Of a DNA stretch of 64,000 nt, positions 9,322 through 27,065 are shown one piece after another. The stretch is from NCBI GenBank assembly GCA_946811695.1, contig OX328123.1, positions 45,220,017-45,284,016 on the forward strand, written 5' to 3'. The translations under genes and the position numbers were made by a program. The notes beneath the pieces are model-generated. The model made no database searches and was not told the origin of the DNA. It worked only from the letters and a program-made list of their open reading frames with translations. Positions within the stretch are counted from its first letter, which is position 1. Every line of letters begins with the position of its first letter. This DNA comes from Gonocerus acuteangulatus (lineage: Eukaryota; Arthropoda; Insecta; Hemiptera; Coreidae).

Positions 9322-9370
<49 letters not shown>
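9157..9370 (-). mobile_element. Repeat family A, tail of split reverse copy
   Basis: The hairpin tail (AGCGCGGTTCC onward) and (TA)n tract of a minus-strand family A copy. Its other half resumes at 25141. The TA tract runs to 9370, where Penelope sequence begins. Confidence 0.85.
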
Positions 9371-9376
<6 letters not shown>

Positions 9377-9522
9377 TTTCAAGTTACTTCGCTGGGAATT
9401 AAATGTGTTGTTCATTCGGCATCTGTCTCCAGCGGTCTTGCTCCTCCTAACATCGCAATATTTCGCCGGATTCCTCTCCGGCTTCTTCGGGCCTTCACTC
9501 ATCCTTGCTGGTCGGTAAGGGA
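9371..9522 (-). mobile_element. Penelope unit start, truncated at the TA tract
   Basis: The reverse complement matches the first about 150 bp of Penelope copies 2 and 3 (TCCCTTACCGACCAGC, the MSEGP start codon region, ending ACTTGAAAAACAAC). It stops where the copies read ACATATCAAACC and the flank reads ATATAT, an ATAT microhomology. It is the next tandem unit downstream of copy 1 on the minus strand, displaced from it by the LINE insertion. Confidence 0.85.
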
Positions 9523-9558
9523 ATGAGTCCGTCTTTTTTTTTTTTTTTTTTTTTTTTT

Positions 9559-9958
9559 CCTAAACCCCACTTTAGATAAAAGAGAAATAAAAAGCATGCA
9601 AGGAAGGGCATGATGAAAACGAAAGTGAAAGAAAAACGTGCAGAAACGCAAAGAAAAACTAAGGACCTCGAACGACACAGGCGGGCGTAAGGGCCACAGG
9701 TAGAGGGAGGATGAGGGAGGAGGTGTCCTTATTCTGCATTAATGCACTTGAAGGCGGTAAGTAAAGGAGAAAAAGGTGTAGGATTCCCAAAGGGAGGTAT
9801 GTGTAATGTGCTGCGTGGGGCACAGCGATAGAGGAGGAGGTAAAACGAAAGATAGTCGGAGAGTAGAAGAAAGAAGAAAGGGGAAGAAGGTCAGTTATAC
9901 TGTCTTACGTGTCAAGTGTCAGTGTAACTTGTGTTTGTTGGATTGTTCCTAGCGTGTT
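9559..9958 (-). other. LINE 3'UTR
   Basis: Sequence between the ORF2 stop and the poly(A). Its reverse complement recurs as 5'-truncated stubs at 16888-17169 and 19855-20147, which defines the 3' end of this LINE family. Confidence 0.85.
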
Positions 9959-12623
9959 CTAAAATGTGTTGTGTTCTAGTACGTCTACTAGTCGTCGTGT
10001 GAACTCTGTTGGTCCTTGCCAGCGTCCTGGTCGTCCAGGTGGTGTGATGTCGTTAAAGAGTGGATTGTCATGGTACTTAAGTCCGTCAAAGAATTTGATG
10101 TGACGTCGTTTTATGAATTCTGAAACTGTAGGGAGTTCTAAAAGTTTGTGTAAGTCGGGGGCTTTGAGTTTATTGTGTGAGGTGCTCCGTGTGACTGTTT
10201 TGAGTATTCGGTTCTGAAAAGATTGTAGTGTTCTGAGTATGGTGGGGTTCAGAAACCGAAAGAGTGGTGTGCCGTATAGTAGTGCCGGTCGTAGGACTCC
10301 TTTGTATATGAGTAGCTTCAGTCTGAGTGAGAGGTTTGGTGAATTGAGTAAATATCCAAGAGAGCGGGCTTTCGTCCTGACAAGCTTTAGCTTCTTGGTA
10401 AAGTGTGTGTGAAAACTGAGGTGTGTACCTAAGTGTATCCCCAAGTAATTGATATGTCTTTTTAACTTGTTTCTTTTGTTTCTAACCGTGAAATACTTGG
10501 GGCGTGCTCGTGTTGAATTGCCATGAAAGGCGAAGAGTAGTGCGTCTGTCTTAGTCGGGTTAACTGTGATGTGTATTCGTCGCAGTTCGTCTACTACGTC
10601 TGCGCAAACCTCTTCAGCTTGTTTTAATGCCTTTGAATGTGACATGGATGTGCTGTATATCGCGATATCGTCGGCATATGCGGCTATTTTTGTGTCTGGG
10701 TACTGTTCACCGACGATTTCTGATGTGTAAATGGAAAAGAGTGTTGCTGCGAGTACTGACCCCTGTGGTACACCGCAGGGGATTGGGTGTGTGCTGGAGA
10801 GGCTTGCCCCTACCCTAACCGTCATAGTACGTCCGTATAGGAAAGAGTGTATTATGTTATAGAGTTGTTCTGGACATCCGTAAGTTCTGAGTTGCTGCAT
10901 GAGTATATTATGTGAAACAGAGTCAAAAGCTTTCGTACAGTCAATCGATATGAGTGCTGTAGTCCGGTTCATGAGCATGTTGTTTGTGATATGTGATTGG
11001 AGCCTTACTAGCTGGTGTTCTGAACTGTGTGCAGGGCGGAAGCCGAACTGCTCAGCAGGGATAATATCCTCCTCTGCGCAAAAGTCTTTAAGATATCTCA
11101 GTATTATCTTTTCATAAACTTTTGATAAATGAGGCAGTAGGCTAATTGGTCTGTAGTGTTCAGGTGTGTCGCCCTTTTTGTTGGGTTTGAGTAGTGGTGT
11201 GATTATAGCGTGTCTCCAGTGTTCGGGGAAGTGTCTGAGGCGGAGGCATGTGTTATATATGTGTACGAGATAGTGTAGTCCTTTTCTCGGTAACTGTTTG
11301 AGTAGTATGTACTGAAGTCTGTCATGTCCTGGGGATTTATTCCCTCGTGTCTGTCTGAGTATGGCTGTCAGTTGTTTTGGTGAGACGTACATGTAATTGT
11401 CTTGTAGTGTGAGTCTGTATTCAGGTGTACGGTCTTTGTTGCGAGTCTGAGCGTCATGTGAGTAGTAGGTAGCGAGTATGTCCGCCTGGTCTTTTTCGTC
11501 TAGTAGAGTATCTTGTCTGTGTATTTTTACTGTGTTAGTCTTATGCGTGCGTGTTCGTATGAGCCTCCAGAATTGCCTATAGTCACCATGTGTCTGCCTG
11601 AGTTTCTCATGCCACATGGACGTCTTCCATTGTGACATGAGAGTGCGTATTTGTGTAGTGAGTGAGTTTAGTGCAGTTTTATAATGCCTGTCTCGTGTTC
11701 TGTACCAAATGTTTTTGATGTTGTTTCGTTGTTTGATGAGTGTGAGAATGTGTTGTGGTGGTTTCCTAAGATTTGGAGGTGCTGGCGCGAACTTAGGAAT
11801 GCTCGAGTCGGCCGCGAAGGTGATTGTGTCTGTGAACTGTTTAATGGCCTCATCGAGAATTTGTGTGTCGTGTATGGGTGTGATAGGGGGGGGGGTGTTC
11901 GTGTATGAGGTGTTTGTATTTGTGCCAGTCTGCCTTACTGTAGTGGTAGTTTGTGGCTGTGGGTATGGGGATGTGCCCGTGTAGTTCGTATAAGACCGGC
12001 CTGTGGTCTGATGTGATAAAATCGAGTGCAGTGCACGCGGTTATTACGTGTGGTTGTCGCGTAACTAGCAAGTCAATCGTTGAAGTCATGCTGGGATCTG
12101 CGAAATGTCTGAATGTGTGTGTGCCTGGGTGTATGACTGTCAGGGGGTATTTAGTCAGCTTAGTCCCTGCGGGGTTATTTCTCGTATTATGCCAGGCAGT
12201 GTGTCTAGCGTTCAGGTCACCTATGAGTATGTGTCGTCTGTCTGTCGAAGTTTCCGAAAGGAGAAGTCCCAGTCGTGAAAGTCGTCCTCTCGGTCTCCGA
12301 TAGTATGCGGTCAGTTTGTACGTCTTGTTCAGTTTTACTATAATTGTCAGAACAAAATTGTATTCGTCTGGGTGTATGATAGGGTCTATCCGTTGAAAAC
12401 GTGTGCCGTGTCGAAGGCCGATGGCGACTCCACCGGCTAGTGTGTTGTCCATGTCGTGCCGGAGAAGTGTATAGCCTTGGAAGTGTGCGTAACTACCTCT
12501 GGTCAGTCGTGTGTCGGTTAGTATGAATACAGTGGGCTATATTTGTCGTAGAAGTAAGTCCACGTCTTGTAGTTTTGGAGTTAGTCCGTTCGTGTTTAAG
12601 TTAAGTATAGTGTGTCTGGTCAT
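9959..12623 (-). pseudogene. LINE ORF2, endonuclease plus reverse transcriptase, two lesions
   Basis: Starts at ATG 12623-12621, overlapping the ORF1 stop, and would be about 888 codons. The N-terminal half is an apurinic-type endonuclease (LIGDLNARHTAWHN, then a TSDHRPVLYEL block). The RT domain follows with PGHDRLQYILLKQL, EQFGFRPAHSS, CGVPQGSVLAATLFSIY and the catalytic AYADDIAIY. The C-terminal part resembles other Jockey ORF2 tails. Two lesions: an in-frame TAG at 12539-12537 in the endonuclease, and a frame change at a run of ten G (+ strand 11886-11895) between endonuclease and RT. The RT frame is open from 11638 and in register back to the G run. Either lesion could be mutational; the homopolymer could also be an assembly error. 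Confidence 0.88.
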
Positions 12624-14191
12624 TTTGTTATCAGTTTTGTCATGAGTTCAACTAATGTACGTATCATGGACATCATGTCGGTCATGGTGTTAGTCAGTCG
12701 TTCGACCCATGCGGGTGTACTGTCACTGGTGTGTTGTTGTGGTGCAATAGGTGTTGGTAATTGGTAGGTTGGTGGTGTATGTGGGGTGGGCAACAGAGCT
12801 GGTCTGGTGTTTTGTGTGCGTTGGGGAAGTGGTTGTGTTGGTGGTGGTGGTGGAGGGGGAAGTTGTGTGATGTGGCCAGTGAAGGCATTAGAGTAGCTGA
12901 AGGCTGGGTCTACTGTTCTGTATGTTCGTGCTGGTGTGTTAGCCGGGGGGGCTACTATTGTTTGTCGGGCTTTTCGGCTCTTCTCTAATAGGTCGAGCCG
13001 GGCTGGGCATTGCCTGTATGAGGCGGGGTGCTGCTCCTGACAGATGGGGCACTGGAGTGTGTTGGTGATCCGGTCGCAGTCTTTCGACGCGTGTGCTTTG
13101 CCACAGCGAACACAACGTTCGCGTAAGTTGCAATTATTTCTGGTGTGGCCGAAGCGCTGACACCGGAAACACTGAGAGATTGAGTTGTCTCCCTTGTAGG
13201 GTTTGAAATACACTATTATTTGATCGATCGATTTGATCGATTTTAGGTGTGTTGGGTTGAATTTAGGGGTGAATGTGAGTAAGACAGGGGGGATGGGGGC
13301 TCTAGTACCGTCTGTCGTGGTTTTGCTCATACGTTTCACTGATACCAGTTGATCCGTTTGGAGCTCCTGCTTAATGTTCTCTAGCGGGTGGTCAACATCC
13401 AGCCCGAAGAGCACGAATGATTGGTTTTTGGGGGAGCCCTTGGGTGTGTAAGAGTAAAATTGCGTCTTGTTGGTCGTAAGTTTGTTTTTGATTGTTTCGA
13501 AAGTCTTGAGGTCTTGGGCAAATATCTTATTTCCGCCTTTACATCTTTGTACAGTGTAATTTTTAATGCCGGCTGTGTTGAGTGTTCTGACGAGACTGTT
13601 TACGTCAGTGTAGTGTGGGGGCAGTACAATGGGTGGTGGTTTTATGTTCCTGAGGGGTTCAAATTTGTTCTGAGTTTTAATAGGGGCGGGGGTGTTGTTG
13701 ACAGTGGGTGTGGTGTTACGGGCCACCTTCCGGTGTTTTTTGCCCTGTGGCTTGACCAGTGTAAAGATTTCACTATCAGTGATATCTTCGCTATCTGAAG
13801 AGCTGCTGGTCTCAATAGGTCTCTTGGAGGCCGGGGGAAGGTTAGGAAAGTCTTTCGTATTTTCTAAGGCGATTCCCTGTTCCATTGGAGACTCGGGGGC
13901 CAGGATGTTGAAGAGACGATCCATCTCTTCGCTTGTGAATGTGCGTGTGGCGAGGGCTTCTAGAGTGTCCTTTTGGATGTGTGTGCTTTTAGAGGGTGGT
14001 GGTGTGTCAGAGCGTGTTTGGTGGGTTGTGTGAGGGTGCTCATGTGAAAACATGGTGGGGGGTGGGCGTGGCGAGAAGAGGGGGTAAAAGAGAGAGGGGA
14101 GAGTCAGAGTGGGGGTAGTAAGAGTGGGGGTACCCTGGTGGTGGGGGCCGCCTGCGGTCGTACCTGTACCGACCGACAGACGGGTGGGCAA
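12620..14191 (-). CDS. LINE ORF1, gag-like nucleic-acid-binding protein
   Basis: Intact 523-residue frame. The N-terminal third is Pro/Thr/Ser-rich and low complexity. A central region carries a conserved-looking block (LFGLDVDHPLENIKQELQ) like the PRE_C2HC domain of Jockey gag proteins. Three zinc knuckles follow: CFRCQRFGHTRNNC, CVRCGKAHASKDC, and CPICQEQHPASYRQC. A proline-rich tail closes the protein. The family packages LINE RNA into an RNP and directs its localisation. Translation could start at 14191 or at the later Met near 14053. The stop codon overlaps the ORF2 start as ATGA, suggesting coupled termination-reinitiation as described for SART1-type LINEs. Confidence 0.88.
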   Translation of the reverse strand: MPTRLSVGTGTTAGGPHHQGTPTLTTPTLTLPSLFYPLFSPRPPPTMFSHEHPHTTHQTRSDTPPPSKSTHIQKDTLEALATRTFTSEEMDRLFNILAPESPMEQGIALENTKDFPNLPPASKRPIETSSSSDSEDITDSEIFTLVKPQGKKHRKVARNTTPTVNNTPAPIKTQNKFEPLRNIKPPPIVLPPHYTDVNSLVRTLNTAGIKNYTVQRCKGGNKIFAQDLKTFETIKNKLTTNKTQFYSYTPKGSPKNQSFVLFGLDVDHPLENIKQELQTDQLVSVKRMSKTTTDGTRAPIPPVLLTFTPKFNPTHLKSIKSIDQIIVYFKPYKGDNSISQCFRCQRFGHTRNNCNLRERCVRCGKAHASKDCDRITNTLQCPICQEQHPASYRQCPARLDLLEKSRKARQTIVAPPANTPARTYRTVDPAFSYSNAFTGHITQLPPPPPPPTQPLPQRTQNTRPALLPTPHTPPTYQLPTPIAPQQHTSDSTPAWVERLTNTMTDMMSMIRTLVELMTKLITK

Positions 14192-14504
14192 AGCCCCGGA
14201 AAGCAGAACCCCTTAGCAATTCCCTTGTGGGTCCGGACCCAACGGCTTGCTTAGAGATCCTGGATGTGCCCCTTACTCTCTTCGTCTGCAACTGCTGCTG
14301 GTCCTGGCTGCTACACCAGGCGCTTCTGCTCTTACGAGCTTACTGACCGAGCGGGTGCTCGGGGCCTAGCTTCTTGAGTAGCTGGTCCTGCTGGAGATCA
14401 CTGGAGAGCTGCCGGCGAATGCACAAGAGCTGCGACGAGGTAGAAGAGTTCCAAGTAAGCAGACGATGTGTTCTGAACAGGAGCTCATGAAGAATGAGTC
14501 CGTC

Positions 14505-16602
14505 CTTGGTCTGGGCTCCCTTTATACGCCTTGGTCGGAGATTGTGCGAGCCAATAAGCTTGGGGGGCTGTGGGCCAATGGGGAGTCGGCTGTCTCCGTC
14601 CGTTTCTTCAGTTGTCCGTTCGGGGCGCTGATGGTCTTGCGTGGGTGGCTTGACTTCTATCCTCTTCATGATGGGCCGCCATGTGTTAGAAAGGATGAGT
14701 CCATCTTCTCTATTGAAATTGGCCGGATACTTCTGGATTTCAATCGCCTCCCTGATTTGTCTTCTGGTCAGAGCGTTTTCTTTGGCTAGGGTCTTGGCTT
14801 GGTCAAAGAGGATTTGTTTGGGGCACTCTTCTCCGTGTGTTGCCACTGCAGAGTATTTCGTGCGTCCCAGCCTGTAGTCAGCAGCGTGCTGTCCAATCCG
14901 GGTGGCTACCTTCTTCCCTGTCTGTCCTATATACACCTTCCCACAGTCGCACGGTAGAAGGTATACACCCTGGTCTTGTAGCCGCTGCTTATCCTTGCTT
15001 TTGCTTAGCCAATCCCCAATTTTGTTCAGCGGTTTGTAGGCGACCTCTATCTCATGATTCCTAAAGACTCTGCCTAACTTCTCGCTGACACCACTGACGT
15101 ATGGCAGAGTAATTCTGCGTCGTTGTTCTGTATCTCTCGTGTTGTTAGCATCTCGGTGTCGATCCTTCGCTATCCTTATAGTCCGGGCCAATTTCTTCCT
15201 GTCATAACCATTGTTGGCTAAGTCCTCCGTTAACTGTTCCAGCTCTGCTCTTAGGAGTGTATCGTTGCTGCACAGGGATATAGCTCTGAGTGTTAGTGTT
15301 TTCGTTACTCCTGTTTTTTGCGCCATGTGATGGTGAGATTCGGCGTGGAGATATCTTCCTGTGTCCGTGGGTTTCCGGTAGACCGTGTGTTCTAATCTCC
15401 CGTTGGGCCCCTTAATGATCAGGAGGTCTAGGAAAGGCAATCTGCCGTTCTTCTCTTCTTCAACGGTAAATCTGATGGCTGGGTGCGAGTAGTTCATCAG
15501 ATGAAGGAATTTTTTGAGTTCCTCTGCACCGTGCTGCCAGATTGCGAAGACATCGTCCACATATCGTAGCCAAAGCTTCGGTTTGTGTTCGGTGCCCTCG
15601 ATCAGTCGTCTTTCGAAGTCCTCCATGAAAATATCAGCCACAACTGGTGATAGGGGACTGCCCATGGCCACTCCATCCTTCTGCTTATAGATGATTCCCT
15701 TGTACTGGAAGTAGCAGGAAGTTAGAACTAGTTCAGCTAGTTCCATCATCCCTCCCTCCAGGAATTCATTGTTCTTGATGATCTGGGTAGCATCTTCAGC
15801 TGGAAGGCTGGTGAAGAGGGACTCCACGTCAAAGCTCACCATCAGGTCTCCTTCTTCGAGCCTTGTGTTTTTTAGGATTTCCACCAAATGAATTGAATTT
15901 CGTACTGCTGAAAAGGACTGGCCTGTGTAAGGTTTCAGAGCTTTTGCCAGCACCTTGCTGGCTCTGTACGTGGGCGCTCCAATCATGGAGACTATAGGCC
16001 TGAGGGGTGCTCCTTCTTTGTGGATTTTTGGTAAACCATAGATCCGGGGTATTCTGGAGTCACCGGGGGCCATCTCTGCGATTCGTGCCTTATCTTTTAT
16101 CTTCTCTTTTAAGATTTTATTAATTTGATTTTCAATTCGTTTGGTGGGGTCCTTTATGTTCTTCTCATATGTGTCTATGGACAGTAAGCCTTCCATTTTG
16201 TCTTCATAAGATGTCTTGTCGAGTGTAACCGTTACATTTCCTTTGTCAGCCTTTGTGATTAAGACATCTTCCCTCTTCCTCAGATCACATAAGGCTTTTC
16301 TTTGGGCTGGTGTTAAGTTGTCCTTCGGGGGCCTGGCTCTTCCGACGAGGTGGGCAGCTTCTAACCTGATCGTTTCAGCCTTGTCCTTATCCATATGGAA
16401 AAGAGCGGCCTCGATGCTGGTTACCAGTTCCTCCGTCGGGTTGCGTTTCGGTGCCACAGCGAAATTCATGCCTTTTTCAAGGACTTCAGTGGCTTCCTGA
16501 GACAACTCAATACCAGCCAAGTTTACAATGACTTTTCTGTCCACTGGTGGGCGTGGTTGTTGTTGCAAAAAATCATTTTCAACGACCCTTTTGAGGGTCA
16601 CC
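14505..16602 (-). mobile_element. Penelope-like element copy 1, 5'-truncated
   Basis: Open reading frame for Penelope RT plus GIY-YIG endonuclease, beginning in the block TLKRVVENDFLQQQPRPP near 16602 and reading to KDGLI at the LINE junction. Motifs as in copies 2 and 3: LPKIHKEGAPLRPIVS, MGSPLSPVVADIFMEDF, LRYVDDVFAIW, GVYLLPCDCGKVYIGQTGKK. The long frame continues on both sides into foreign sequence. Its first about 120 codons (16976-16603) are antisense Penelope 3' sequence and its end (to 14340) is LINE 5'UTR, so those extensions are artefacts. The N-terminal domain is missing. Confidence 0.9.
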
Positions 16603-16887
16603 AAAACGCTCTGACCAGAAGACAAATCAGGGAGGCGATTGAAATCCAGAAGTATCCGGCCAATTTCAATAGAGAAGATGGACTCATCCTTTCTAACACA
16701 TGGCGGCCCATCATAAAGAGGATAGAAGTCAAGCCACCCACGCAAGACCATCAGCGCCCCGAATGGACAACTGAAGAAACGGACGGAGACAGCCGACTCC
16801 CCATTGGCCCACAGCCCCCCAAGCTTATTGGCTCGCACAATCTCCGACCAAGGCGTATAAAGGGAGCCCAGACCAAGGACGGACTCA
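16603..16887 (+). mobile_element. Penelope 3' fragment (1b) at inversion point
   Basis: Encodes the C-terminal end of the Penelope protein (ALTRRQIREAIEIQKYPANF to AQTKDGL) on the + strand, directly abutting the truncated 5' end of minus-strand copy 1. The join shares CCAAA microhomology between the two source sequences. Inverted 5' junctions of this kind are known in Penelope-like elements. The fragment ends at GACGGACTCA, followed by a LINE 3'UTR stub. Confidence 0.88.
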
Positions 16888-17169
16888 CATCGCTGTGCCC
16901 CACACAGCACATTACACATACCTCCCTTTGGGAATCCTACACCTTTTTCTCCTTTACTTACCGCCTTCAAGTGCATTAATGCAGAATAAGGACACCTCCT
17001 CCCTCATCCTCCTTACCTGTGGCCCTTACGCCCGCCTGTGTCGTTCGAGGTCCTTAGTTTTTCTTTGCGTTTCTGCACGTTCTTCTTTCACTTTCGTTTT
17101 CATCATGCCCTTCCTTGCATGCTTTTTATTTCTCTTTTATCTAAAGTGGGGTTTAGGAAAAAAAAAAAA
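16888..17169 (+). mobile_element. LINE 3'UTR stub (a) at the Penelope junction
   Basis: A 5'-truncated copy of the Jockey LINE 3'UTR with 12 A, flanked by GACGGACTCA (16878-16887) and GACGGACTCAT (17170-17180). It begins with one extra C and then the ATCGCTGTGCCCC point of the 3'UTR. Its truncation point and poly(A) length differ from stub (b), which indicates a separate insertion. Confidence 0.88.
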
Positions 17170-19854
17170 GACGGACTCATTCCCTTACCGACCAGCAAGG
17201 ATGAGTGAAGGCCCGATGAAGCCGGAGAGAAATCCGGCGAAATATTGCGATGTTAGGAGGAGCAAGACCGCTGGAGACAGGTGCCGAATGAACAACACAT
17301 TTAATTCCCAGCGAAGTAACTTGAAAAACAACATATCAAACCTCTACGGCGAGGAAACGTACACCCTGACCAGGAGACTGAGCAAAACGAGGTGCCGCAT
17401 AGCGACAACGCGTAATGACCTGGACTTCCTACGGAGATGCAGGGACGAGAAGGTGACACCCCCCTTCCTGAGGATGAAGAGGCCCCTTCAGACTCCCAAA
17501 GCAGCCCGGATCTATGATAACATGGAGAAGGCGCTGCTTAGGGAAAGAATTGGAGCTTACCGCCACAGGTTGTGGAGCCAAGTAACAGAGGAAACTTCCC
17601 TAAAGGACAAAATACGGTCAATAGTTGACCCAGACATTTGGGATACTGTTGACCGCATAACAGATGACAAGGCAAAAAAGGAAGGGACAAGAAACGCCGA
17701 ATAGAAAACGAAGAAATGGGACAAATTGACGCGAAAATCAAATTTGGTGGCCCTCAAAAGGGTCGTTGAAAATGATTTTTTGCAACAACAACCACGCCCA
17801 CCAGTGGACAGAAAAGTCATTGTAAACTTGGCTGGTATTGAGTTGTCTCAGGAAGCCACTGAAGTCCTTGAAAAAGGCATGAATTTCGCTGTGGCACCGA
17901 AACGCAACCCGACGGAGGAACTGGTAACCAGCATCGAGGCCGCTCTTTTCCATATAGATAAGGACAAGGCTGAAACGATCAGGTTAGCAGCTGCCTACCT
18001 CGTCGGAAGAGCCAGGCCCCCGAAGGACAACTTAACACCAGCCCAAAGAAAAGCCTTATGTGATCTGAGGAAGAGGGAAGATGTCTTAATCACAAAGGCT
18101 GACAAAGGAAATGTAACGGTTATACTCGACAAGACATCTTATGAAGACAAAATGGAAGGCTTACTGTCCATAGACACATATGAGAAGAACATAAAGGACC
18201 CCACCAAACGAATTGAAAATCAAATTAATAAAATCTTAAAAGAGAAGATAAAAGATAAGGCACGAATCGCAGAGATTGCCCCCGGTGACTCCAGAATACC
18301 CCGGATCTATGGTTTACCAAAAATCCACAAAGAAGGAGAACCCCTCAGGCCTATAGTCTCCATGATTGGAGCGCCCACGTACAGAGCCAGCAAGGTGCTG
18401 GCAAAAGCTCTGAAACCTTACACAGGCCAGTCCTTTTCAGCAGTACGAAATTCAATTCATTTGGTGGAAATCCTAAAAAACACAAGGCTCGAAGAAGGAG
18501 ACCTGATGGTGAGCTTTGACGTGGAGTCCCTCTTCACCAGCCTTCCAGCTGAAGATGCTACCCAGATCATCAAGAACAATGAATTCCTGGAGGGAGGGAT
18601 GATGGAACTAGCTGAACTAGTTCTAACTTCCTGCTACTTCCAGTACAAGGGAATCATCTATAAGCAGAAGGATGGAGTGGCCATGGGCAGTCCCCTATCA
18701 CCAGTTGTGGCTGATATTTTCATGGAGGACTTCGAAAGACGACTGATCGAGGGCACCGAACACAAACCGAAGCTTTGGCTACGATATGTGGACGATGTCT
18801 TCGCAATCTGGCAGCACGGTGCAGAGGAACTCAAAAAATTCCTTCATCTGATGAACTACTCGCACCCAGCCATCAGATTTACCGTTGAAGAAGAGAAGAA
18901 CGGCAGATTGCCTTTCCTAGACCTCCTGATTATTAAGGGGCCCAACGGGAGATTAGAACACACGGTCTACCGGAAACCCACGGCCACAGGAAGATATCTC
19001 CACGCCGAATCTCACCATCACATGGCGCAAAAAACAGGAGTAACGAAAACACTAACACACAGAGCTATATCCCTGTGCAGCAACGATACACTCCTAAGAG
19101 CAGAGCTGGAACAGTTAACGGACGACTTAGCCAGCAATGGTTATGACAGGAAGAAATTGGCCCGGACTATAAGGATAGCGAAGGATCGACACCGAGATGC
19201 TAACAACACGAGAGATACAGAACAACGACGCAGAATTACTCTGCCATACGTCAGTGGTGTCAGCGATAAGTTAGGCAGAGTCTTTAGGAATCATGAGATA
19301 GAGGTCGCCTACAAACCGCTGAACAAAATTGGGGATTGGCTAAGCAAAAGCAAGGATAAGCAGCGGCTACAAGACCAGGGTGTATACCTTCTACCGTGCG
19401 ACTGTGGGAAGGTGTATATAGGACAGACAGGGAAGAAGGTAGCCACCCGGATTGGACAGCACGCTGCTGACTACAGGCTGGGACGCACGAAATACTCTGC
19501 AGTGGCAACACACGGAGAAGAGTGCCCCAAACAAATCCTCTTTGACCAAGCCAAGACCCTAGCCAAAGAAAACGCTCTGACCAGAAGACAAATCAGGGAG
19601 GCGATCGAAATCCAGAAGTATCCGGCCAATTTCAATAGAGAAGATGGACTCATCCTTTCTAACACATGGCGGCCCATCATGAAGAGGATAGAAGTCAAGC
19701 CACCCACGCAAGACCATCAGCGCCCCGAACGGACAACTGAAGAAACGGACGGAGACAGCCGACTCCCCATTGGCCCACAGCCCCCCAAGCTTATTGGCTC
19801 GCACAATCTCCGACCAAGGCGTATAAAGGGAGCCCAGACCAAGGACGGACTCAT
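17170..19854 (+). mobile_element. Penelope-like element copy 2, complete unit
   Basis: A 2.68 kb unit from GACGGACTCAT to the next GACGGACTCAT, holding the N-terminal frame and the RT/GIY-YIG frame. It is nearly identical to copy 3, so amplification is recent. No long terminal repeat is seen. The unit is nearly all coding, and its ends are defined by the tandem joins. Confidence 0.88.
17201..17704 (+). CDS. Penelope N-terminal domain frame (copy 2)
   Basis: 167 residues beginning MSEGPMKPERNPAKY. It is basic and Arg-rich, with a helical-looking C-terminal half, and has no domain I recognise beyond the N-terminal region expected upstream of Penelope RT. It ends at TAG (17702-17704). The same frame stays open past this stop through KTKKWDKLTRKSNL into the RT frame, so the amber codon is the only separation. 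ATG 17201 is the first Met after the tandem join; further upstream the frame runs into the LINE stub. Confidence 0.75.
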   Translation: MSEGPMKPERNPAKYCDVRRSKTAGDRCRMNNTFNSQRSNLKNNISNLYGEETYTLTRRLSKTRCRIATTRNDLDFLRRCRDEKVTPPFLRMKRPLQTPKAARIYDNMEKALLRERIGAYRHRLWSQVTEETSLKDKIRSIVDPDIWDTVDRITDDKAKKEGTRNAE

Positions 19855-19942
19855 ACACAGCACATTACACATACCTCCCTTTGGGAATCCTACACCTTTT
19901 TCTCCTTTACTTACCGCCTTCAAGTGCATTAATGCAGAATAA
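17726..19942 (+). CDS. Penelope-like reverse transcriptase / GIY-YIG endonuclease (copy 2)
   Basis: 738 residues. The RT domain spans roughly residues 130-480: LPKIHKEGEPLRPIVS, DLMVSFDVESLFTSLP, MGSPLSPVVADIFMEDF and catalytic LRYVDDVFAIW. The GIY-YIG nuclease follows at about 550-640: GVYLLPCDCGKVYIGQTGKK, an Arg in VATRIGQH, a Glu in REAIEIQKY and an Asn in PANFNRED. This architecture defines endonuclease-bearing Penelope-like retroelements, which prime reverse transcription at a nicked target. The natural C-terminus is altered: after KDGLI it reads about 26 residues of LINE 3'UTR. It lies in frame with the N-terminal frame across one amber codon. Confidence 0.92.
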   Translation: MTRKSNLVALKRVVENDFLQQQPRPPVDRKVIVNLAGIELSQEATEVLEKGMNFAVAPKRNPTEELVTSIEAALFHIDKDKAETIRLAAAYLVGRARPPKDNLTPAQRKALCDLRKREDVLITKADKGNVTVILDKTSYEDKMEGLLSIDTYEKNIKDPTKRIENQINKILKEKIKDKARIAEIAPGDSRIPRIYGLPKIHKEGEPLRPIVSMIGAPTYRASKVLAKALKPYTGQSFSAVRNSIHLVEILKNTRLEEGDLMVSFDVESLFTSLPAEDATQIIKNNEFLEGGMMELAELVLTSCYFQYKGIIYKQKDGVAMGSPLSPVVADIFMEDFERRLIEGTEHKPKLWLRYVDDVFAIWQHGAEELKKFLHLMNYSHPAIRFTVEEEKNGRLPFLDLLIIKGPNGRLEHTVYRKPTATGRYLHAESHHHMAQKTGVTKTLTHRAISLCSNDTLLRAELEQLTDDLASNGYDRKKLARTIRIAKDRHRDANNTRDTEQRRRITLPYVSGVSDKLGRVFRNHEIEVAYKPLNKIGDWLSKSKDKQRLQDQGVYLLPCDCGKVYIGQTGKKVATRIGQHAADYRLGRTKYSAVATHGEECPKQILFDQAKTLAKENALTRRQIREAIEIQKYPANFNREDGLILSNTWRPIMKRIEVKPPTQDHQRPERTTEETDGDSRLPIGPQPPKLIGSHNLRPRRIKGAQTKDGLIHSTLHIPPFGNPTPFSPLLTAFKCINAE

Positions 19943-20104
19943 GGACACATCCTCCCTCTACCTGTGGCCCTTACGCCCGCCTGTGTCGTTCGAGGTCCTT
20001 AGTTTTTCTTTGCATTCCTGCACGTTTTTCTTCACCTTCGTTTTCATCATGCCCTTCCTTGCATGCTTTTTTTATTTATCTTTCTCTCTAAAGTGGGGTT
20101 TAGG

Positions 20105-20147
<43 letters not shown>
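19855..20147 (+). mobile_element. LINE 3'UTR stub (b) at the Penelope junction
   Basis: A second 5'-truncated LINE 3'UTR, starting ACACAGCACATTACAC and ending in 43 A. Flanked by GACGGACTCAT on both sides (19844-19854 and 20148-20158). It lacks some bases present in stub (a) and has its own truncation point. Confidence 0.9.
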
Positions 20148-20149
<2 letters not shown>

Positions 20150-22832
20150 CGGACTCATTCCCTTACCGACCAGCAAGGATGAGTGAAGGCCCGATGAAGC
20201 CGGAGAGAAATCCGGCGAAATATTGCGATGTTAGGAGGAGCAAGACCGCTGGAGACAGATGCCGAATGAACAACACATTTAATTCCCAGCGAAGTAACTT
20301 GAAAAACAACATATCAAACCTCTACGGCGAGGAAACGTACACCCTGACCAGGAGACTGAGCAAAACGAGGTGCCGCATAGCGACAACGCGTAATGACCTG
20401 GACTTCCTACGGAGATGCAGGGACGAGAAGGTGACACCCCCCTTCCTGAGGATGAAGAGGCCCCTTCAGACTCCCAAAGCAGCCCGGATCTATGATAACA
20501 TGGAGAAGGCGCTGCTTAGGGAAAGAATTGGAGCTTACCGCCACAGGTTGTGGAGCCAAGTAACAGAGGAAACTTCCCTAAAGGACAAAATACGGTCAAT
20601 AGTTGACCCAGACATTTGGGATACTGTTGACCGCATAACAGATGACAAGGCAAAAAAGGAAGGGACAAGAAACGCCGAATAGAAAACGAAGAAATGGGAC
20701 AAATTGACGCGAAAATCAAATTTGGTGGCCCTCAAAAGGGTCGTTGAAAATGATTTTTTGCAACAACAACCACGCCCACCAGTGGACAGAAAAGTCATTG
20801 TAAACTTGGCTGGTATTGAGTTGTCTCAGGAAGCCACTGAAGTCCTTGAAAAAGGCATGAATTTCGCTGTGGCACCGAAACGCAACCCGACGGAGGAACT
20901 GGTAACCAGCATCGAGGCCGCTCTTTTCCATATAGATAAGGACAAGGCTGAAACGATCAGGTTAGAAGCTGCCCACCTCGTCGGAAGAGCCAGGCCCCCG
21001 AAGGACAACTTAACACCAGCCCAAAGAAAAGCCTTATGTGATCTGAGGAAGAGGGAAGATGTCTTAATCACAAAGGCTGACAAAGGAAATGTAACGGTTA
21101 TACTCGACAAGACATCTTATGAAGACAAAATGGAAGGCTTACTGTCCATAGACACATATGAGAAGAACATAAAGGACCCCACCAAACGAATTGAAAATCA
21201 AATTAATAAAATCTTAAAAGAGAAGATAAAAGATAAGGCACGAATCGCAGAGATTGCCCCCGGTGACTCCAGAATACCCCGGATCTATGGTTTACCAAAA
21301 ATCCACAAAGAAGGAGAACCCCTCAGGCCTATAGTCTCCATGATTGGAGCGCCCACGTACAGAGCCAGCAAGGTGCTGGCAAAAGCTCTGAAACCTTACA
21401 CAGGCCAGTCCTTTTCAGCAGTACGAAATTCAATTCATTTGGTGGAAATCCTAAAAAACACAAGGCTCGAAGAAGGAGACCTGATGGTGAGCTTTGACGT
21501 GGAGTCCCTCTTCACCAGCCTTCCAGCTGAAGATGCTACCCAGATCATCAAGAACAATGAATTCCTGGAGGGAGGGATGATGGAACTAGCTGAACTAGTT
21601 CTAACTTCCTGCTACTTCCAGTACAAGGGAATCATCTATAAGCAGAAGGATGGAGTGGCCATGGGCAGTCCCCTATCACCAGTTGTGGCTGATATTTTCA
21701 TGGAGGACTTCGAAAGGCGACTGATCGAGGGCACCGAACACAAACCGAAGCTTTGGCTACGATATGTGGACGATGTCTTCGCAATCTGGCAGCACGGTGC
21801 AGAGGAACTCAAAAAATTCCTTCATCTGATGAACAACTCGCACCCAGCCATCAGATTTACCGTTGAAGAAGAGAAGAACGGCAGATTGCCTTTCCTAGAC
21901 CTCCTGATTATTAAGGGGCCCAACGGGAGATTAGAACACACGGTCTACCGGAAACCCACGGCCACAGGAAGATATCTCCACGCCGAATCTCACCATCACA
22001 TGGCGCAAAAAACAGGAGTAACGAAAACACTAACACACAGAGCTATATCCCTGTGCAGCAACGATACACTCCTAAGAGCAGAGCTGGAACAGTTAACGGA
22101 CGACTTAGCCAGCAATGGTTATGACAGGAAGAAATTGGCCCGGACTATAAGGATAGCGAAGGATCGACACCGAGATGCTAACAACACGAGAGATACAGAA
22201 CAACGACGCAGAATTACTCTGCCATACGTCAGTGGTGTCAGCGAGAAGTTAGGCAGAGTCTTTAGGAATCATGAGATAGAGGTCGCCTACAAACCGCTGA
22301 ACAAAATTGGGGATTGGCTAAGCAAAAGCAAGGATAAGCAGCGGCTACAAGACCAGGGTGTATACCTTCTACCGTGCGACTGTGGGAAGGTGTATATAGG
22401 ACAGACAGGGAAGAAGGTAGCCACCCGGATTGGACAGCACGCTGCTGACTACAGGCTGGGACGCACGAAATACTCTGCAGTGGCAACACACGGAGAAGAG
22501 TGCCCCAAACAAATCCTCTTTGACCAAGCCAAGACCCTAGCCAAAGAAAACGCTCTGACCAGAAGACAAATCAGGGAGGCGATTGAAATCCAGAAGTATC
22601 CGGCCAATTTCAATAGAGAAGATGGACTCATCCTTTCTAACACATGGCGGCCCATCATGAAGAGGATAGAAGTCAAGCCACCAACGCAAGACCATCAGCG
22701 CCCCGAACGGACAACTGAAGAAACGGACGGAGACAGCCGACTCCCCATTGGCCCACAGCCCCCCAAGCTTATTGGCTCGCACAATCTCCGACCAAGGCGT
22801 ATAAAGGGAGCCCAGACCAAGGACGGACTCAT
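20148..22832 (+). mobile_element. Penelope-like element copy 3, complete unit
   Basis: 2.68 kb unit bounded by GACGGACTCAT at both ends. Same layout as copy 2, with only scattered substitutions. It is followed directly by the 5' end of another Jockey LINE at 22833. Confidence 0.9.
20179..20682 (+). CDS. Penelope N-terminal domain frame (copy 3)
   Basis: 167 residues, same predicted protein as in copy 2, ending at the same TAG (20680-20682). The next in-frame codons again lead into the RT frame without another stop. Sharing the stop with copy 2 may simply reflect recent duplication of an already mutated unit. Confidence 0.75.
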   Translation: MSEGPMKPERNPAKYCDVRRSKTAGDRCRMNNTFNSQRSNLKNNISNLYGEETYTLTRRLSKTRCRIATTRNDLDFLRRCRDEKVTPPFLRMKRPLQTPKAARIYDNMEKALLRERIGAYRHRLWSQVTEETSLKDKIRSIVDPDIWDTVDRITDDKAKKEGTRNAE

Positions 22833-22929
22833 GGCATTCATCATTATTCATTGTCCTGCCAGCAGCCGAAGAGGAAGGACCACTCCAGGAACTAGCTCAA
22901 GCTCTGCCAGCACACGTTGTGAAGAATAG
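20704..22929 (+). CDS. Penelope-like reverse transcriptase / GIY-YIG endonuclease (copy 3)
   Basis: 741 residues with the copy 2 motifs: RT catalytic YVDD near 21763 and GIY-YIG motif near 22357-22400. The start codon used here is formal; if the amber at 20680 is read through, the protein would begin at 20179 and be about 910 residues, close to a usual Penelope length. The last about 30 residues after KDGL come from the LINE 5'UTR (MAFIIIHCPASS onward). Differences from copy 2 include N for Y in HLMNNSHPA and EKLGRV for DKLGRV. Confidence 0.92.
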   Translation: MTRKSNLVALKRVVENDFLQQQPRPPVDRKVIVNLAGIELSQEATEVLEKGMNFAVAPKRNPTEELVTSIEAALFHIDKDKAETIRLEAAHLVGRARPPKDNLTPAQRKALCDLRKREDVLITKADKGNVTVILDKTSYEDKMEGLLSIDTYEKNIKDPTKRIENQINKILKEKIKDKARIAEIAPGDSRIPRIYGLPKIHKEGEPLRPIVSMIGAPTYRASKVLAKALKPYTGQSFSAVRNSIHLVEILKNTRLEEGDLMVSFDVESLFTSLPAEDATQIIKNNEFLEGGMMELAELVLTSCYFQYKGIIYKQKDGVAMGSPLSPVVADIFMEDFERRLIEGTEHKPKLWLRYVDDVFAIWQHGAEELKKFLHLMNNSHPAIRFTVEEEKNGRLPFLDLLIIKGPNGRLEHTVYRKPTATGRYLHAESHHHMAQKTGVTKTLTHRAISLCSNDTLLRAELEQLTDDLASNGYDRKKLARTIRIAKDRHRDANNTRDTEQRRRITLPYVSGVSEKLGRVFRNHEIEVAYKPLNKIGDWLSKSKDKQRLQDQGVYLLPCDCGKVYIGQTGKKVATRIGQHAADYRLGRTKYSAVATHGEECPKQILFDQAKTLAKENALTRRQIREAIEIQKYPANFNREDGLILSNTWRPIMKRIEVKPPTQDHQRPERTTEETDGDSRLPIGPQPPKLIGSHNLRPRRIKGAQTKDGLMAFIIIHCPASSRRGRTTPGTSSSSASTRCEE

Positions 22930-24036
22930 AAGAACCCCGAAGAGAGTAGCTGCCTATTCCTCCCGGATCCCTAAACAAGCCGTAACCCACGGGGGTTACA
23001 AGGGAATTGTTAAGGGGTTCGGCCGGGTCTTAGACCAACTCGCAGCTTCGGAGAAGCCCGGACTGCGAGCCCCTGTCCTGATTTGCCCTCTCTTCGAAAA
23101 TTCAGGACCTACCAGGATGAACAGCAGAGAGTTCAACGGCCCTTCCACGGGCCAACGAAAAATAGAAGTCAACGGCCCTGCTACGGGCCACCAAATCCAC
23201 GACGCTAACGGCCCTTCTACGGGTCATCAACGTGAAATGGACACTGAAGACGGAACCCCCTGCCTGAAGCGTGGCCACAGCGACGACGAAGGATTTCAGC
23301 TGCCCAAAAAGTTTACAGCTCGGCCCAAAATACCTAGGACGTCAGTTACCGAAACGAGGAACTCCTTTGCCCTACTTCCTCAAGAAAAAGAGACGACCGA
23401 AAAAGAAAAGACCAAGGCTGCCCGCCAACCACCTTTCATCATAAGCCCGCCTATTTCCGCAGCGGACCTGAAAACTCACCTACGGGCCCGTGGGGTAATT
23501 GGCTACCGTATCAACAACAGCGAAAAGGAGACAAGGCTCTTCGTTACCACGGACGCCGAACACCAGACCGTGTGGGAAATGCTGCAGGAGGACAGAAACA
23601 TAACGTTTCACACCTTCGCCCGCAGGACGAAGAAGCGTGACAAGCGGTTTTTACTTCACGGGTTCGACCGGGACCACCCCTTGAATGAAATAACCGAGGA
23701 ATTGAAGGAGCGGCTCGGCGGTTTCAAAAAGTCAACTAGGCTGACCAAGGGCCTAGAAGACGGCAGTAAGGTGGAATTGAATACCGTCCTTCTTGTCACA
23801 GATCACCAGACGACACTCAAGGCGGTACAAGATCTGCGGCACATTGACCACGTGGGGTTCAAGGCCACCAACTTTAAGACGGGAGGCGGACCGGTACAGT
23901 GCTACCACTGCCTCGACTTCGGGCACACTGCGCTATACTGCGGTCGCCCCGGCAAGTGTGGATGGTGTGGCGAGAACCACTGGACCCACCAGTGCCTAAG
24001 AACAACGAAGCCCAAGTGCCAGCAATGCGGAGAGGG
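22833..24036 (+). mobile_element. Second Jockey-type LINE, 5'UTR plus most of ORF1
   Basis: Begins exactly after GACGGACTCAT. The 5'UTR shares a block with the full LINE at 14.2 kb (CCCTAAACAAGCCGT and GGGAATTGTTAAGGGGTTC against CTCTAAGCAAGCCGT and GGGAATTGCTAAGGGGTTC), but the ORF1 protein is quite diverged, so this is a related but distinct lineage. It stops inside the third zinc knuckle where Penelope copy 4 starts; ORF2 and the 3' end are missing. Confidence 0.85.
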
Positions 24037-25051
24037 AGCCATCAGATTTACCGTTGAAGAAGAGAAGAACGGCAGATTGCCTTTCCTAGACCTCCTGATC
24101 ATTAAGGGGCCCAACGGGAGATTAGAACACACGGTCTACCGGAAACCCACGGCCACAGGAAGATATCTCCACGCCGAATCTCACCATCACATGGCGCAAA
24201 AAACAGGAGTAACGAAAACACTAACACACAGAGCTATATCCCTGTGCAGCAACGATACACTCCTAAGAGCAGAGCTGGAACAGTTAACGGAGGACTTAGC
24301 CAGCAATGGTTATGAAAGGAAGAAATTGGCCCGGACTATAAGGATAGCGAAGGATCGACACCGAGATGCTAACAACACGAGAGATACAGAACAACGACGC
24401 AGAATTACTCTGCCATACGTCAGTGGTGTCAGCGAGAAGTTAGGCAGAGTCTTTAGGAATCATGAGATAGAGGTCGCCTACAAACCGCTGAACAAAATTG
24501 GGGATTGGCTAAGCAAAAGCAAGGATAAGCAGCGGCTACAAGACCAGGGTGTATACCTTCTACCGTGCGACTGTGGGAAGGTGTATATAGGACAGACAGG
24601 GAAGAAGGTAGCCACCCGGATTGGACAGCACGCTGCTGACTACAGGCTGGGACGCACGAAATACTCTGCAGTGGCAACACACGGAGAAGAGTGCCCCAAA
24701 CAAATCCTCTTTGACCAAGCCAAGACCCTAGCCAAAGAAAACGCTCTGACCAGAAGACAAATCATGGAGGCGATTGAAATCCAGAAGTATCCGGCCAATT
24801 TCAATAGAGGAGATGGACTCATCCTTTCTAACACATGGCGGCCCATCATGAAGAGGATAGAAGTCAAGCCACCCACGCAAGACCATCAGCGCCCCGAACG
24901 GACAACTGAAGAAACGGACGGAGACAGCCGACTCCCCATTGGCCCACAGCCCCCCAAGCTTATTGGCTCGCACAATCTCCGACCAAGGCGTATAAAGGGA
25001 GCCCAGACCAAGGACGGACTCATTCCCTTACCGACCAGCAAGGATGAGTGA
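23117..25051 (+). CDS. Chimeric frame: LINE gag fused to Penelope GIY-YIG endonuclease
   Basis: One uninterrupted frame; ATG 23117 is the likely ORF1 start, though the frame is open from 22919. The first part is a Jockey-type gag. It has three near-repeats (NGPSTGQ, NGPATGHQ, NGPSTGHQ), a PRE_C2HC-like block (LLHGFDRDHPLNEITEELKE), knuckles CYHCLDFGHTALYC and CGWCGENHWTHQC, and the first half of a third (CQQCGEG). At about 24037 it switches to Penelope AIRFTVEEEKNGRLPFLDLL, then continues through GVYLLPCDCGKVYIGQTGKK to the native Penelope end, PLPTSKDE. The RT catalytic core is absent. The join shares an AGCC microhomology. Most likely a product of truncated insertion; expression is unknown. 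Confidence 0.85.
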   Translation: MNSREFNGPSTGQRKIEVNGPATGHQIHDANGPSTGHQREMDTEDGTPCLKRGHSDDEGFQLPKKFTARPKIPRTSVTETRNSFALLPQEKETTEKEKTKAARQPPFIISPPISAADLKTHLRARGVIGYRINNSEKETRLFVTTDAEHQTVWEMLQEDRNITFHTFARRTKKRDKRFLLHGFDRDHPLNEITEELKERLGGFKKSTRLTKGLEDGSKVELNTVLLVTDHQTTLKAVQDLRHIDHVGFKATNFKTGGGPVQCYHCLDFGHTALYCGRPGKCGWCGENHWTHQCLRTTKPKCQQCGEGAIRFTVEEEKNGRLPFLDLLIIKGPNGRLEHTVYRKPTATGRYLHAESHHHMAQKTGVTKTLTHRAISLCSNDTLLRAELEQLTEDLASNGYERKKLARTIRIAKDRHRDANNTRDTEQRRRITLPYVSGVSEKLGRVFRNHEIEVAYKPLNKIGDWLSKSKDKQRLQDQGVYLLPCDCGKVYIGQTGKKVATRIGQHAADYRLGRTKYSAVATHGEECPKQILFDQAKTLAKENALTRRQIMEAIEIQKYPANFNRGDGLILSNTWRPIMKRIEVKPPTQDHQRPERTTEETDGDSRLPIGPQPPKLIGSHNLRPRRIKGAQTKDGLIPLPTSKDE

Positions 25052-25140
25052 AGGCCCGAAGAAGCCGGAGAGGAATCCGGCGAAATATTGCGATGTTAGG
25101 AGGAGCAAGACCGCTGGAGACAGATGCCGAATGAACAACA
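24037..25140 (+). mobile_element. Penelope copy 4, 5'-truncated, plus start of next unit
   Basis: Covers the RT thumb, GIY-YIG and native C-terminus, then passes GACGGACTCAT (25013-25023) straight into the first 117 bp of another unit (to GAATGAACAACA, 25140). This is the only junction in the array not occupied by a LINE. The upstream ORF ends GAT GAG TGA, while the downstream unit's ATG AGT GAA starts inside it, so successive units overlap by 8 bases and have no intervening UTR. Confidence 0.88.
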
Positions 25141-27065
25141 TATATATATATATATTTGTCTGTTCGCTCATTTCTGGCTTCCCTGATGGTCCGATTTTGA
25201 TGAAATTTGGTACAAAAATCTGTCGTCCAATTTGAAAGGTCAAGTTCGTTAACCAGCAAAATCCGCCCACTGGAAGATGGCGTTTGGGGCGAAATTCGCG
25301 CAAAAAAAATCGTAACGCTTACGTTTTTGAGTTCATAAGCTTGTAAGTACTCGTTTTATAGGCTTCTTGGGCTATGAAAACGAATGAAACCATTTTCAAG
25401 GCGATAGCTTTAACCGTTTTCGAGAAAACTGAAAAAATAATGTTTGAATGCCGTTTTTGGTTTGGGTACTTAGAATCATGGGATTCAGTTGAAACATTTA
25501 CTGCATCTTCTACTTTCATTAAAACTAATATGTTGAAATTTTGGTTGCGTTTGGAGTTAAGGAAGGGTTAGAATAAAATATTTTATTAACAGACATAAAA
25601 AAGTTTTGGTAACTTTGTATACTTTCCTTAATATCTCGAAAAAGGTTAAGAATCTTGGGAAACGGAAGAATACCATTGGAAAGCTTACTAAATCCTCTAC
25701 AAACAAGGTTCTAATGAAAGTTTTGATTAGGCGATGTCAATCGGAGAAATAAGTGCTTAAACTTTAAAGTAATTGATTTCGCTTATTCGAACTGTTCTTT
25801 TTGTCTTTGATTTTGATACTTAAAATTATGGGATTCAGTTGAAACATTTTCTGCATGTTTGAATTTCATCAACACTAATATGTTAAAATTTCGGTTACGT
25901 TTGGAGCTAAGGAAGGATTAGAATAAAATATTTTATTAACAGACATGAAATGTTTTGGGAGCTTCGTATACATTCCCTGATATCTCGAAGACGGTTAGGA
26001 ATATTGGTAAACGGAGGGTTACCATGCGAAAGCTTACTAAATGTTCTAGAAAAAAGATTCTGAAACAATTTTTGATTAGGCTATGTCAATCGGAGAAATA
26101 AGTGCTTAAACTTTGAAGTAATTGATTTCGTTTATTCCAACGGTTCTTCTTGTTTGTTTTCATTCCTTGTTGTTTTTTCATTGGTTATAGTAGGATAATG
26201 TATTTGACAATAAAACAGATTAATTAAAATAAGAAAAGCAATTCATTGTTAAAAATATATCAGGCTGTACCGTATGAAATGTCAGTTTTGGATTTGTCGA
26301 TTTCCTTCAAATTTCTTGAAACTGTCGAGGCTCCTATTCCGAGTTCTTTGGCATATTCCCTAGTGTTTTTAATTGCTTATAGTAGTCAAATGTATTTGTC
26401 AATAAAACAGGATACGTATTATTAGAATCAATATTTTGTTTGTTAGAATTCGAAGATGCCGTATGAATATCTAGATTACAGTACTGGTGTTGATTTCGTT
26501 CTTTAGAATTATTCTTGGTATTCCCTATTTTCATCTGTTACCCATAGTTTTTTATTGTTAGCAGGTTTTTCTTATTGATTATTGAATATAAATCTATTTG
26601 GCTATAAAACAGGATACGTAAAATTAGGGACAATATTTCGGAGATTTCTGAGCGAAATACTTTTAATATTTTCTACCACCACGAAAGGCTTTTTTCCTCT
26701 ATTTTTATCCACTAGATAGGCTTTATTTTGCATATTATTCTATGTAAGTTTTATTCAGCAGGGGATTCTGATGAAATGTCGTGTTTTTGCTGTGGATTTT
26801 AAATACGATGTATCGAAGATTGGATAACATTAGCGAGTCTACATAGTTAAGAACCGACGACGGAGGATTACTTCTTGCTATGATTTAGTCTACATATGTA
26901 TATTAAGTCCTAAATCCAAAAAATAAACTTAACAACGGTTAGATACTATGAGCGAATATGGCGGTTCAATGCCCGTAAGGTTCGCAGGAAATTTACCTGC
27001 TAAGAGTTAATCCTCAAGAGCTGTAAATATACCCCAGGTATCTGCCGACACAAATACAAAGCCTA
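25141..27065 (-). mobile_element. Repeat family A, main body of split reverse copy
   Basis: Starts with the remaining (TA)n, then TTTGTCTGTTCGCTCATTTC, the GGTCAAGTTCGTTAACCAGC block, and several reverse-oriented copies of the TTTCTCCGATTGACAT-type block through about 26540. More diverged matches to 7280-7560 continue to about 27065. With 9157-9370 it makes one element interrupted by the array. The intact copy at 63443 shows the uninterrupted order. Confidence 0.8.

What the first reader, a model, noticed from the sequence alone, without database searches (positions are those of the whole stretch)
9523..25023. A Jockey-clade LINE family that appears to target the Penelope unit junction
LINE sequence sits immediately after GACGGACTCAT in Penelope DNA four times: a full-length element (9534-14493), two 3'UTR stubs (16888, 19855) and a 5' piece of a diverged lineage (22833). 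The first three have GACGGACTCAT (10-11 bp) again on the far side, behind the poly(A). The stubs have different truncation points and poly(A) lengths, so they are separate events. The one unoccupied junction (25013-25023) gives the empty site. Four hits by two lineages at one base position argues for sequence-specific target-primed insertion. Site-specific LINEs are known for rDNA and telomeric repeats. A Jockey-clade LINE using a Penelope retroelement as its site would be new as far as I know.
Basis: partly seen in the sequence, partly recalled or inferred. Interest (0 to 1): 0.92.

Follow-up and report, generated by a model that had tools for sequence, protein, structure and literature searches.

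The report
LINE that homes to Penelope promoters
In this genome a LINE jumping gene lands, in 43 of 48 copies read on one chromosome-sized contig, at one fixed spot of Penelope-type jumping genes, the predicted start point of their transcription, where it is likely guided by their promoter and would then be transcribed from it.

Summary
The window lies in a held 1.1-Gb genome. Exact LINE 3' ends number 306; in 220 the poly(A) runs into TCATTCC (reversed-pattern control 0). Of all 48 on contig C1, 43 end in Penelope-type DNA at one homologous position, 5 elsewhere (L133 corrected by eye). Two points change. The site is no unit junction but the predicted core promoter of the Penelope unit: a TATA-like box about 31 bp upstream of an initiator-like (T/G)CA, overlapping the last ORF codons. 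And GACGGACTCAT is not the determinant: five Penelope-type families with different words are hit, and 30 of 32 such words read outside Penelope have no LINE beside them, the other two lying in LINE DNA. Constant is geometry: the duplication starts 21-22 bp after the box start; of 5 non-Penelope insertions readable, 3 fit, 1 fits weakly, 1 does not. I infer promoter-guided insertion and promoter theft. Truncated, dead-on-arrival copies sit there too, so targeting, not selection, explains it. Protein or DNA guidance is untested.

The parts
9534..14493 (-). Full-length LINE (5' end at 14493, poly(A) at 9534-9558); ORF1 12620-14191, endonuclease piece 11850-12452, RT 9959-11638; ORF2 is interrupted by stops and frame changes
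14494..14504 (-). 5' copy of the target-site duplication GACGGACTCAT
9523..9533 (-). 3' copy of the target-site duplication, behind the poly(A)
14521..14526 (-). TATAAA of the Penelope unit, 31 bp upstream of the A of ACTCA; predicted promoter in front of the full-length LINE
   Evidence: read; function inferred
14494..16605 (-). Penelope-like element, 3' 2.1 kb with the RT ORF
9371..9533 (-). Penelope leader / 3' tail next to (TA)n
16603..16888 (+). Penelope end with promoter (TATAAA 16856-16861) in front of stub 1; inversion point of the array at about 16603
16889..17169 (+). LINE 3' stub 1, 12 A
17170..19854 (+). Penelope unit (N-terminal ORF, RT ORF from 17726 to the site); TATAAA 19822-19827
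19855..20147 (+). LINE 3' stub 2, 43 A, diverged from stub 1
20148..22832 (+). Penelope unit, 8 substitutions from the previous one; TATAAA 22800-22805
22833..24036 (+). 5' piece of another LINE lineage (ORF1 26% identical over 207 aa), directly behind GACGGACTCAT; fused in frame to a truncated Penelope unit at 24037
24037..25140 (+). 5'-truncated Penelope copy with its tail, ending in (TA)n
24991..24996 (+). TATAAA of the unoccupied predicted promoter; inverted CCAAT words at 24938-24942 and 24962-24966
   Evidence: read; function inferred
25013..25023 (+). Empty target site; predicted +1 at A 25022 in TCATTC

Best explanation
This LINE family inserts at one fixed position of Penelope-type elements (43 of 48 exact 3' ends on contig C1), about 22 bp downstream of the start of a TATA-like box at the predicted transcription start, and it is likely guided there by the core promoter itself. 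Shown by sequence: the position, short target-site duplications (10-13 bp where the poly(A) does not hide their start), poly(A) tails, 5' truncation at different points, one orientation in all 80 Penelope-type junctions read, five Penelope-type target families, and LINE-on-LINE joins at the regenerated site. Inferred: the bottom strand is nicked about 9 bp upstream of +1, the top strand near +2, and reverse transcription starts on the nicked strand (TPRT). Inferred: the complex recognises the promoter, either through TBP/pre-initiation proteins or through the DNA pattern. Inferred: a full-length copy then lies directly behind the host element's CCAAT/TATA promoter and is transcribed from it, while the downstream Penelope unit keeps only the duplicated initiator and loses its TATA box.
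For: Genome-wide: 306 exact 3' ends, 220 running into TCATTCC. C1 census 43 of 48 (the script gave 44, L133 moved to 'other' by eye). All 90 3' junctions read: 80 in families A-E, 10 elsewhere (same correction; arrays and possible local duplicates included). Of 40 windows fetched at the expected 5' end, 22 hold a full-length 5' end and were paired with their 3' flank: A 1, B 6, C 10, D 3, E 1, non-Penelope 1; TATA-like box at -30/-31 of the A in 20 by script (best of 14 offsets, lenient score) and in 2 (L118, L184) by eye. Family E (GAGCCAAGCAT, box GATAAAAA) lacks TCATTCCC, has no measurable promoter similarity to A and keeps the geometry (L150, L169). Non-Penelope: TATATAAG at -22 from the duplication (L136), TATGAATA at -22 (L132), TAAATAAG at -24 (L159); random-offset control for 5 loci: 1 of 100,000 draws reached the sum. 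30 of 32 GACGGACTCAT words read outside Penelope have no LINE beside them. Another LINE lineage (51% aa over 103) ends in poly(A) at the same word of a neighbouring unit of the L136 repeat (L194). Truncated copies, dead on arrival, are at the site too.
Against: No transcript, TBP or nicking data. Promoters of A, B, C and D are related (B 75-78% over 130-167 bp, D 69% over 127 bp, C an 18-bp identical stretch over the box), so independent promoter types are few: A-D, E, and the single loci L136, L132, L159. Most family C boxes are poor (GAGATAAG, GTGAAAAG). In one search L129 has no box at the offset (only initiator-like TCAGTC) and L130 a weak one whose best word lies elsewhere (-14); L159's flank is A/T-rich and has an equal or better word at other offsets (best -108). 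Fractions of offsets scoring at least as high: L129 0.28, L130 0.10, L132 0.04, L159 0.15, L136 0.04. I had looked at these flanks before scoring, and the score is my own. The 5' sides of L069, L088, L133, L162, L164 were not found. 220 of 306 share TCATTCC, which plain sequence recognition would also give, and TCATTCCCTT outside promoters was not tested. L167 has its 5' junction inside the Penelope ORF, so only its 3' end is at the site.
Confidence: 0.64

Rival explanations
1. Classical sequence-specific endonuclease: the LINE recognises conserved Penelope leader DNA (TCATTCCCTT and neighbours), as R1 or TRAS recognise rDNA or telomeric repeats; the promoter is coincidental.
For: 220 of 306 3' ends run into TCATTCC; families A-D share TCATTCCCTT and related promoters.
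Against: Family E (GAGCCAAGCATAGCTCC) and the L136 repeat (CTAGAGTCAGAGG) lack the word but keep the box-to-duplication distance. Of 32 GACGGACTCAT words read outside Penelope none is an insertion into non-LINE DNA, though most of these lack TCATTCCC.
Confidence: 0.29
2. One insertion was copied by segmental or tandem duplication of Penelope arrays.
For: Some joins may be local copies (L009 x3 with the same stub start; three alike flanks at C1 81.83-81.85 Mb).
Against: Different truncation points, poly(A) lengths, target families and contigs; stub divergence exceeds flank divergence.
Confidence: 0.02
3. No targeting: insertions are random and only those behind a promoter were transcribed and amplified.
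For: Full-length copies do sit behind predicted promoters.
Against: Truncated copies are dead on arrival yet also at the site; the C1 census is by 3' end, whatever the length (43 of 48).
Confidence: 0.03
4. The Penelope elements insert next to LINE tails, not the other way round.
For: Most tails are followed by Penelope-type DNA.
Against: Penelope DNA lies on both sides with a short duplication, and uninterrupted sites exist (window 25013; 35 among 86 places; L196).
Confidence: 0.02

Closest known systems
TRE5-A of Dictyostelium (LINE beside tRNA genes; PMC5911963, passages seen)
   Same: APE-type LINE placed at a fixed distance from a promoter; reported ORF1 contact with TBP, Brf1 and Bdp1
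   Different: Pol III genes, about 40-54 bp upstream and in opposite orientation; here predicted Pol II-type start sites of other retroelements, at the start itself and in sense
Ty3 (LTR element at Pol III start sites; PMC5911963, passages seen)
   Same: insertion at the transcription start
   Different: integrase, not TPRT; Pol III
Site-specific LINEs of the R1 and Tx1 clades and RLE clades (PMC4640811, passages seen)
   Same: TPRT into a repeated target; transposons are listed among known targets there
   Different: here several different words with one geometry; Penelope targets are not mentioned in the passages seen
HeT-A of Drosophila (recalled, not read)
   Same: Jockey-type, uses a promoter of its upstream neighbour
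   Different: telomeric; neighbour is another HeT-A
Poseidon of Anolis and other Penelope-like elements (PMC11167929, passages seen)
   Same: the host element: tandem units, pseudo-LTR leader, RT plus GIY-YIG
   Different: here it is the target

Membership tests
Non-LTR retrotransposon (LINE) using TPRT | APE-type endonuclease and RT | tested here: met
   PF14529/PF03372 and PF00078; the window copy is interrupted
Non-LTR retrotransposon (LINE) using TPRT | poly(A) tail, target-site duplication, 5' truncation | tested here: met
Site-specific LINE | most copies at one target position genome-wide | tested here: met
   43 of 48 on C1; 220 of 306 by strict pattern
Site-specific LINE | endonuclease nicks that site in vitro | not testable with these tools
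   none
Jockey clade | position in an RT tree with reference clades | not tested
   only a database name: 'transposon X-element' for P0169 at 32% (120 of 897 hits listed)
Jockey clade | ORF1 with CCHC knuckles, no RNase H | tested here: inconclusive
   knuckles seen by eye; Pfam found no family in ORF1 and no RNase H in the RT ORF
Penelope-like element (target A) | RT related to Penelope-like proteins | tested here: met
   1210 related proteins, 120 listed, top hit 45%; PF00078. That the relatives are Penelope-like rests on the GIY-YIG motif and recall
Penelope-like element (target A) | GIY-YIG domain | tested here: inconclusive
   motif by eye (VYLLPCDCGKVYIGQ); Pfam gave RVT_1 only; PF01541 is listed for relative P0027
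Penelope-like element (target A) | hammerhead ribozyme in the leader | tested here: inconclusive
   CTGANGA...GAAA-like words by eye in families C and E; no Rfam hammerhead match
Penelope-like element (targets B and E) | related RT-endonuclease protein | tested here: met
   B 74-82% over 106 aa (L124, L183), E 57-62% over 297-361 aa (L192)
Penelope-like element (targets C and D) | related RT-endonuclease protein | tested here: inconclusive
   no protein match in the single stretches L196 and L197; promoter DNA resembles A, so called Penelope-type only
Promoter-targeted retroelement (TRE5/Ty3 kind) | dependence on promoter proteins | not testable with these tools
   only the fixed distance from box to duplication

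The most novel reading that the evidence does not exclude
A LINE that homes to Pol II pre-initiation complexes: its TPRT machinery reads TBP/TFIID-bent promoters, nicks 22 bp past the TATA box of other retroelements, steals their promoter for its own RNA and leaves the host element without one, a retroelement preying on retroelements' promoters.
Probability: 0.43. Interest if true: 0.93.

Novelty: new variant of a known kind. Interest (0 to 1): 0.86.

Why it matters
Site-specific LINEs are known for rDNA, telomeres and small-RNA genes, and promoter-guided insertion for Pol III genes. A LINE placed at Pol II-type start sites of other mobile elements would add a new class of target, explain how a LINE can get a promoter without carrying one, and show direct parasitism between two retroelement classes. 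It would also offer a natural tool: an APE-type LINE that inserts at TATA promoters with near base precision. Many near-identical copies suggest recent activity, so it may be testable.

Tried and rejected
Rejected: duplication of one insertion; Penelope inserting beside LINE tails; selection without targeting; the 11-bp word as determinant (see rivals). Led nowhere: viral contigs (2 stretches, no relative; 0), the 5.8-billion protein set (top hits 45% for the Penelope RT and 32% for ORF1, and no fusion of the two found among 262 listed proteins), PDB by sequence, Rfam (none; only matches below gathering, mostly on (TA)n). Paper searches (titles and abstract starts seen, lists capped) listed no paper on a LINE targeting Penelope elements or Pol II start sites; that covers only the open library and those words. 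A planned count of the non-Penelope start-site word did not complete.

Full report
Observation. Searches confirm every stated coordinate. A 15.8-kb Penelope array (9371-25140) lies between (TA)n tracts and is inverted at about 16603. It holds one full-length LINE, two 3' stubs and one 5' piece, each directly behind GACGGACTCA(T), and one empty site. Penelope units are 99.3-99.7% identical over 1-2.7 kb (8 substitutions in 2685 bp between the two full units), but the two stubs differ by 12 substitutions and 4 indels in 246 aligned bp. The stubs are therefore not copies made together with their units. The word with one mismatch 200 bp upstream, present 5 times, is never occupied.

What the site is. 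It encodes DGLI near the end of the Penelope RT ORF. Directly upstream are two inverted CCAAT words and TATAAA. The A of ACTCATTC lies 31 bp after the first T of TATAAA, and TCATTC fits the arthropod initiator consensus (recalled). I therefore read the site as the core promoter of the next unit; no RNA data were available.

Genome-wide word. The window lies in G000:C1:45220017-45284016 of a 1.106-Gb genome. GACGGACTCAT occurs 458 times against 155 for the reversed word. I read 86 of these places, in the window and in stretches of C1 and the first part of C5, after dropping two overlapping loci. 35 are empty Penelope sites, 9 have a LINE 3' end before them, 7 a LINE 5' side after them, and 3 have a Penelope right side with another left side. 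32 lie outside Penelope. A BLAST check found no LINE at the word in 30 of these; in L055 the word is inside the RT ORF of another LINE lineage, and in L060 it lies between a LINE tail and a LINE piece.

LINE 3' ends. A 271-bp query gave 469 first candidates; 40 were scored and 43 matches listed, 40 of them at 100%. The exact end AGTGGGGTTTAGG plus 8 A occurs 306 times, reversed control 0. In 220 of these TCATTCC follows within about 60 nt. I read all 48 on C1: 9 family A, 3 B, 24 C, 6 D, 1 E, 5 elsewhere (L129, L130, L132, L133, L136). The strict pattern catches 35 of these 48, so 220 of 306 is an underestimate. Of 12 further C5 ends, 9 are in A-E and 3 elsewhere (L159, L162, L164). Over all 90 junctions read, 80 are in A-E and 10 elsewhere. 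Not all are independent, because arrays and possible local duplications are included, and the set holds the best-matching copies.

Families. A and B are GACGGACTCATTCCC and GACGAGCTCATTCCC; D is GAAAAATTCATTCCC. C is (GAAAAA)TGTCATTCCC in a short tandem unit of about 0.3 kb with a Penelope-like leader; no RT match in the one stretch read. E is GAGCCAAGCATAGC with its own RT-endonuclease ORF, 57-62% identical to A (L192). Promoter DNA of B, D and C is related to that of A; that of E is not measurably so.

Both junctions. Of 40 windows fetched at the place where a full-length LINE would begin, 22 contain the 5' end and were paired with their 3' flank. Duplications are 10-13 bp where the poly(A) does not hide their start. 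Fillers of 0-15 bp, often GAAC repeats, lie between the duplication and the LINE start CATTCCTTCATGA. The LINE start resembles the target (CATTCCTT against CATTCCCTT). The TATA-like box starts 30 or 31 bp before the A in all 22 (two by eye; the script takes the best of 14 offsets with a lenient score).

Outside Penelope. For all 10 other insertions I fetched a 321-bp window at the full-length position, and for 4 of them a longer stretch. The 5' junction was found in 5: L129, L130, L132, L136, L159. The offset tested (-22, plus or minus 2) comes from the Penelope families, but I had looked at these flanks before scoring them. L136 has TATATAAG at -22, L132 TATGAATA at -22 with CCAAT words upstream, L159 TAAATAAG at -24, L130 a weak word at -20 (its best is at -14), L129 none. 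The summed score was reached by 1 of 100,000 random-offset draws. The score is hand-made and n is 5. At the L136 locus another LINE lineage (51% aa over 103 residues) ends in poly(A) at the same word of a neighbouring unit (L194). Together with the window's 5' piece this shows that LINEs other than the main family sit at such sites; whether those two pieces are one lineage is not known.

Stacking. The duplication regenerates the site, and LINE-on-LINE joins occur (L070, L078, L084 with three LINEs, L085, L091).

Mechanism and limits. TPRT is taken from knowledge of LINEs. Promoter guidance is inferred from constant geometry with changing words. The main rival, recognition of TCATTCCCTT by the endonuclease, explains most but not all cases. 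The closest precedents, TRE5-A and Ty3, act at Pol III genes, and the paper on Utopia names the early-branched (RLE), Tx1 and R1 groups as holding most target-specific LINEs.

Noticed in passing
L006, L008, L017, L018, L020, L026, L027 and others: Another dispersed repeat carries TTTCCTC-GACGGACTCAT-(T/C)GGGG; it accounts for part of the excess of the word and has no LINE at the word.
   Followed up: partly
window 16889, 19855; L009, L188-L191: Many stubs begin within the same stretch of the LINE (about positions 4665-4741 of 4960) at unrelated loci: a truncation hot spot or a short subfamily.
   Followed up: partly
L196 (reverse strand, first 250 bases), L110, L115, L117: Family C is a short tandem unit with promoter-like DNA and a hammerhead-like CTGAAGA...GAAA word, resembling retrozymes; Rfam gave no hammerhead match.
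   Followed up: partly
L069, L132, L133: Three LINE ends lie in what looks like one unidentified repeat (CTCTCYCTCCAG and CCATGCACTCAGGACC); L132 shows CCAAT words and a TATGAATA box.
   Followed up: partly
L174, L193, L194: Unidentified tandem repeat with TATATAAG and an AATAAA about 60 bp after the predicted start, LTR-like; hosts two LINE lineages.
   Followed up: partly
window 22919-25051: Open frame fusing LINE ORF1 of the other lineage to the Penelope endonuclease end, 710 aa; probably chance.
   Followed up: no
L055: Another LINE lineage contains GACGGACTCAT by chance inside its RT ORF.
   Followed up: partly
window 9301-9370 and 25140-25155; L078, L085, L102: Penelope-type copies end in (TA)n, which suggests TA microsatellites as their own target.
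   Followed up: no
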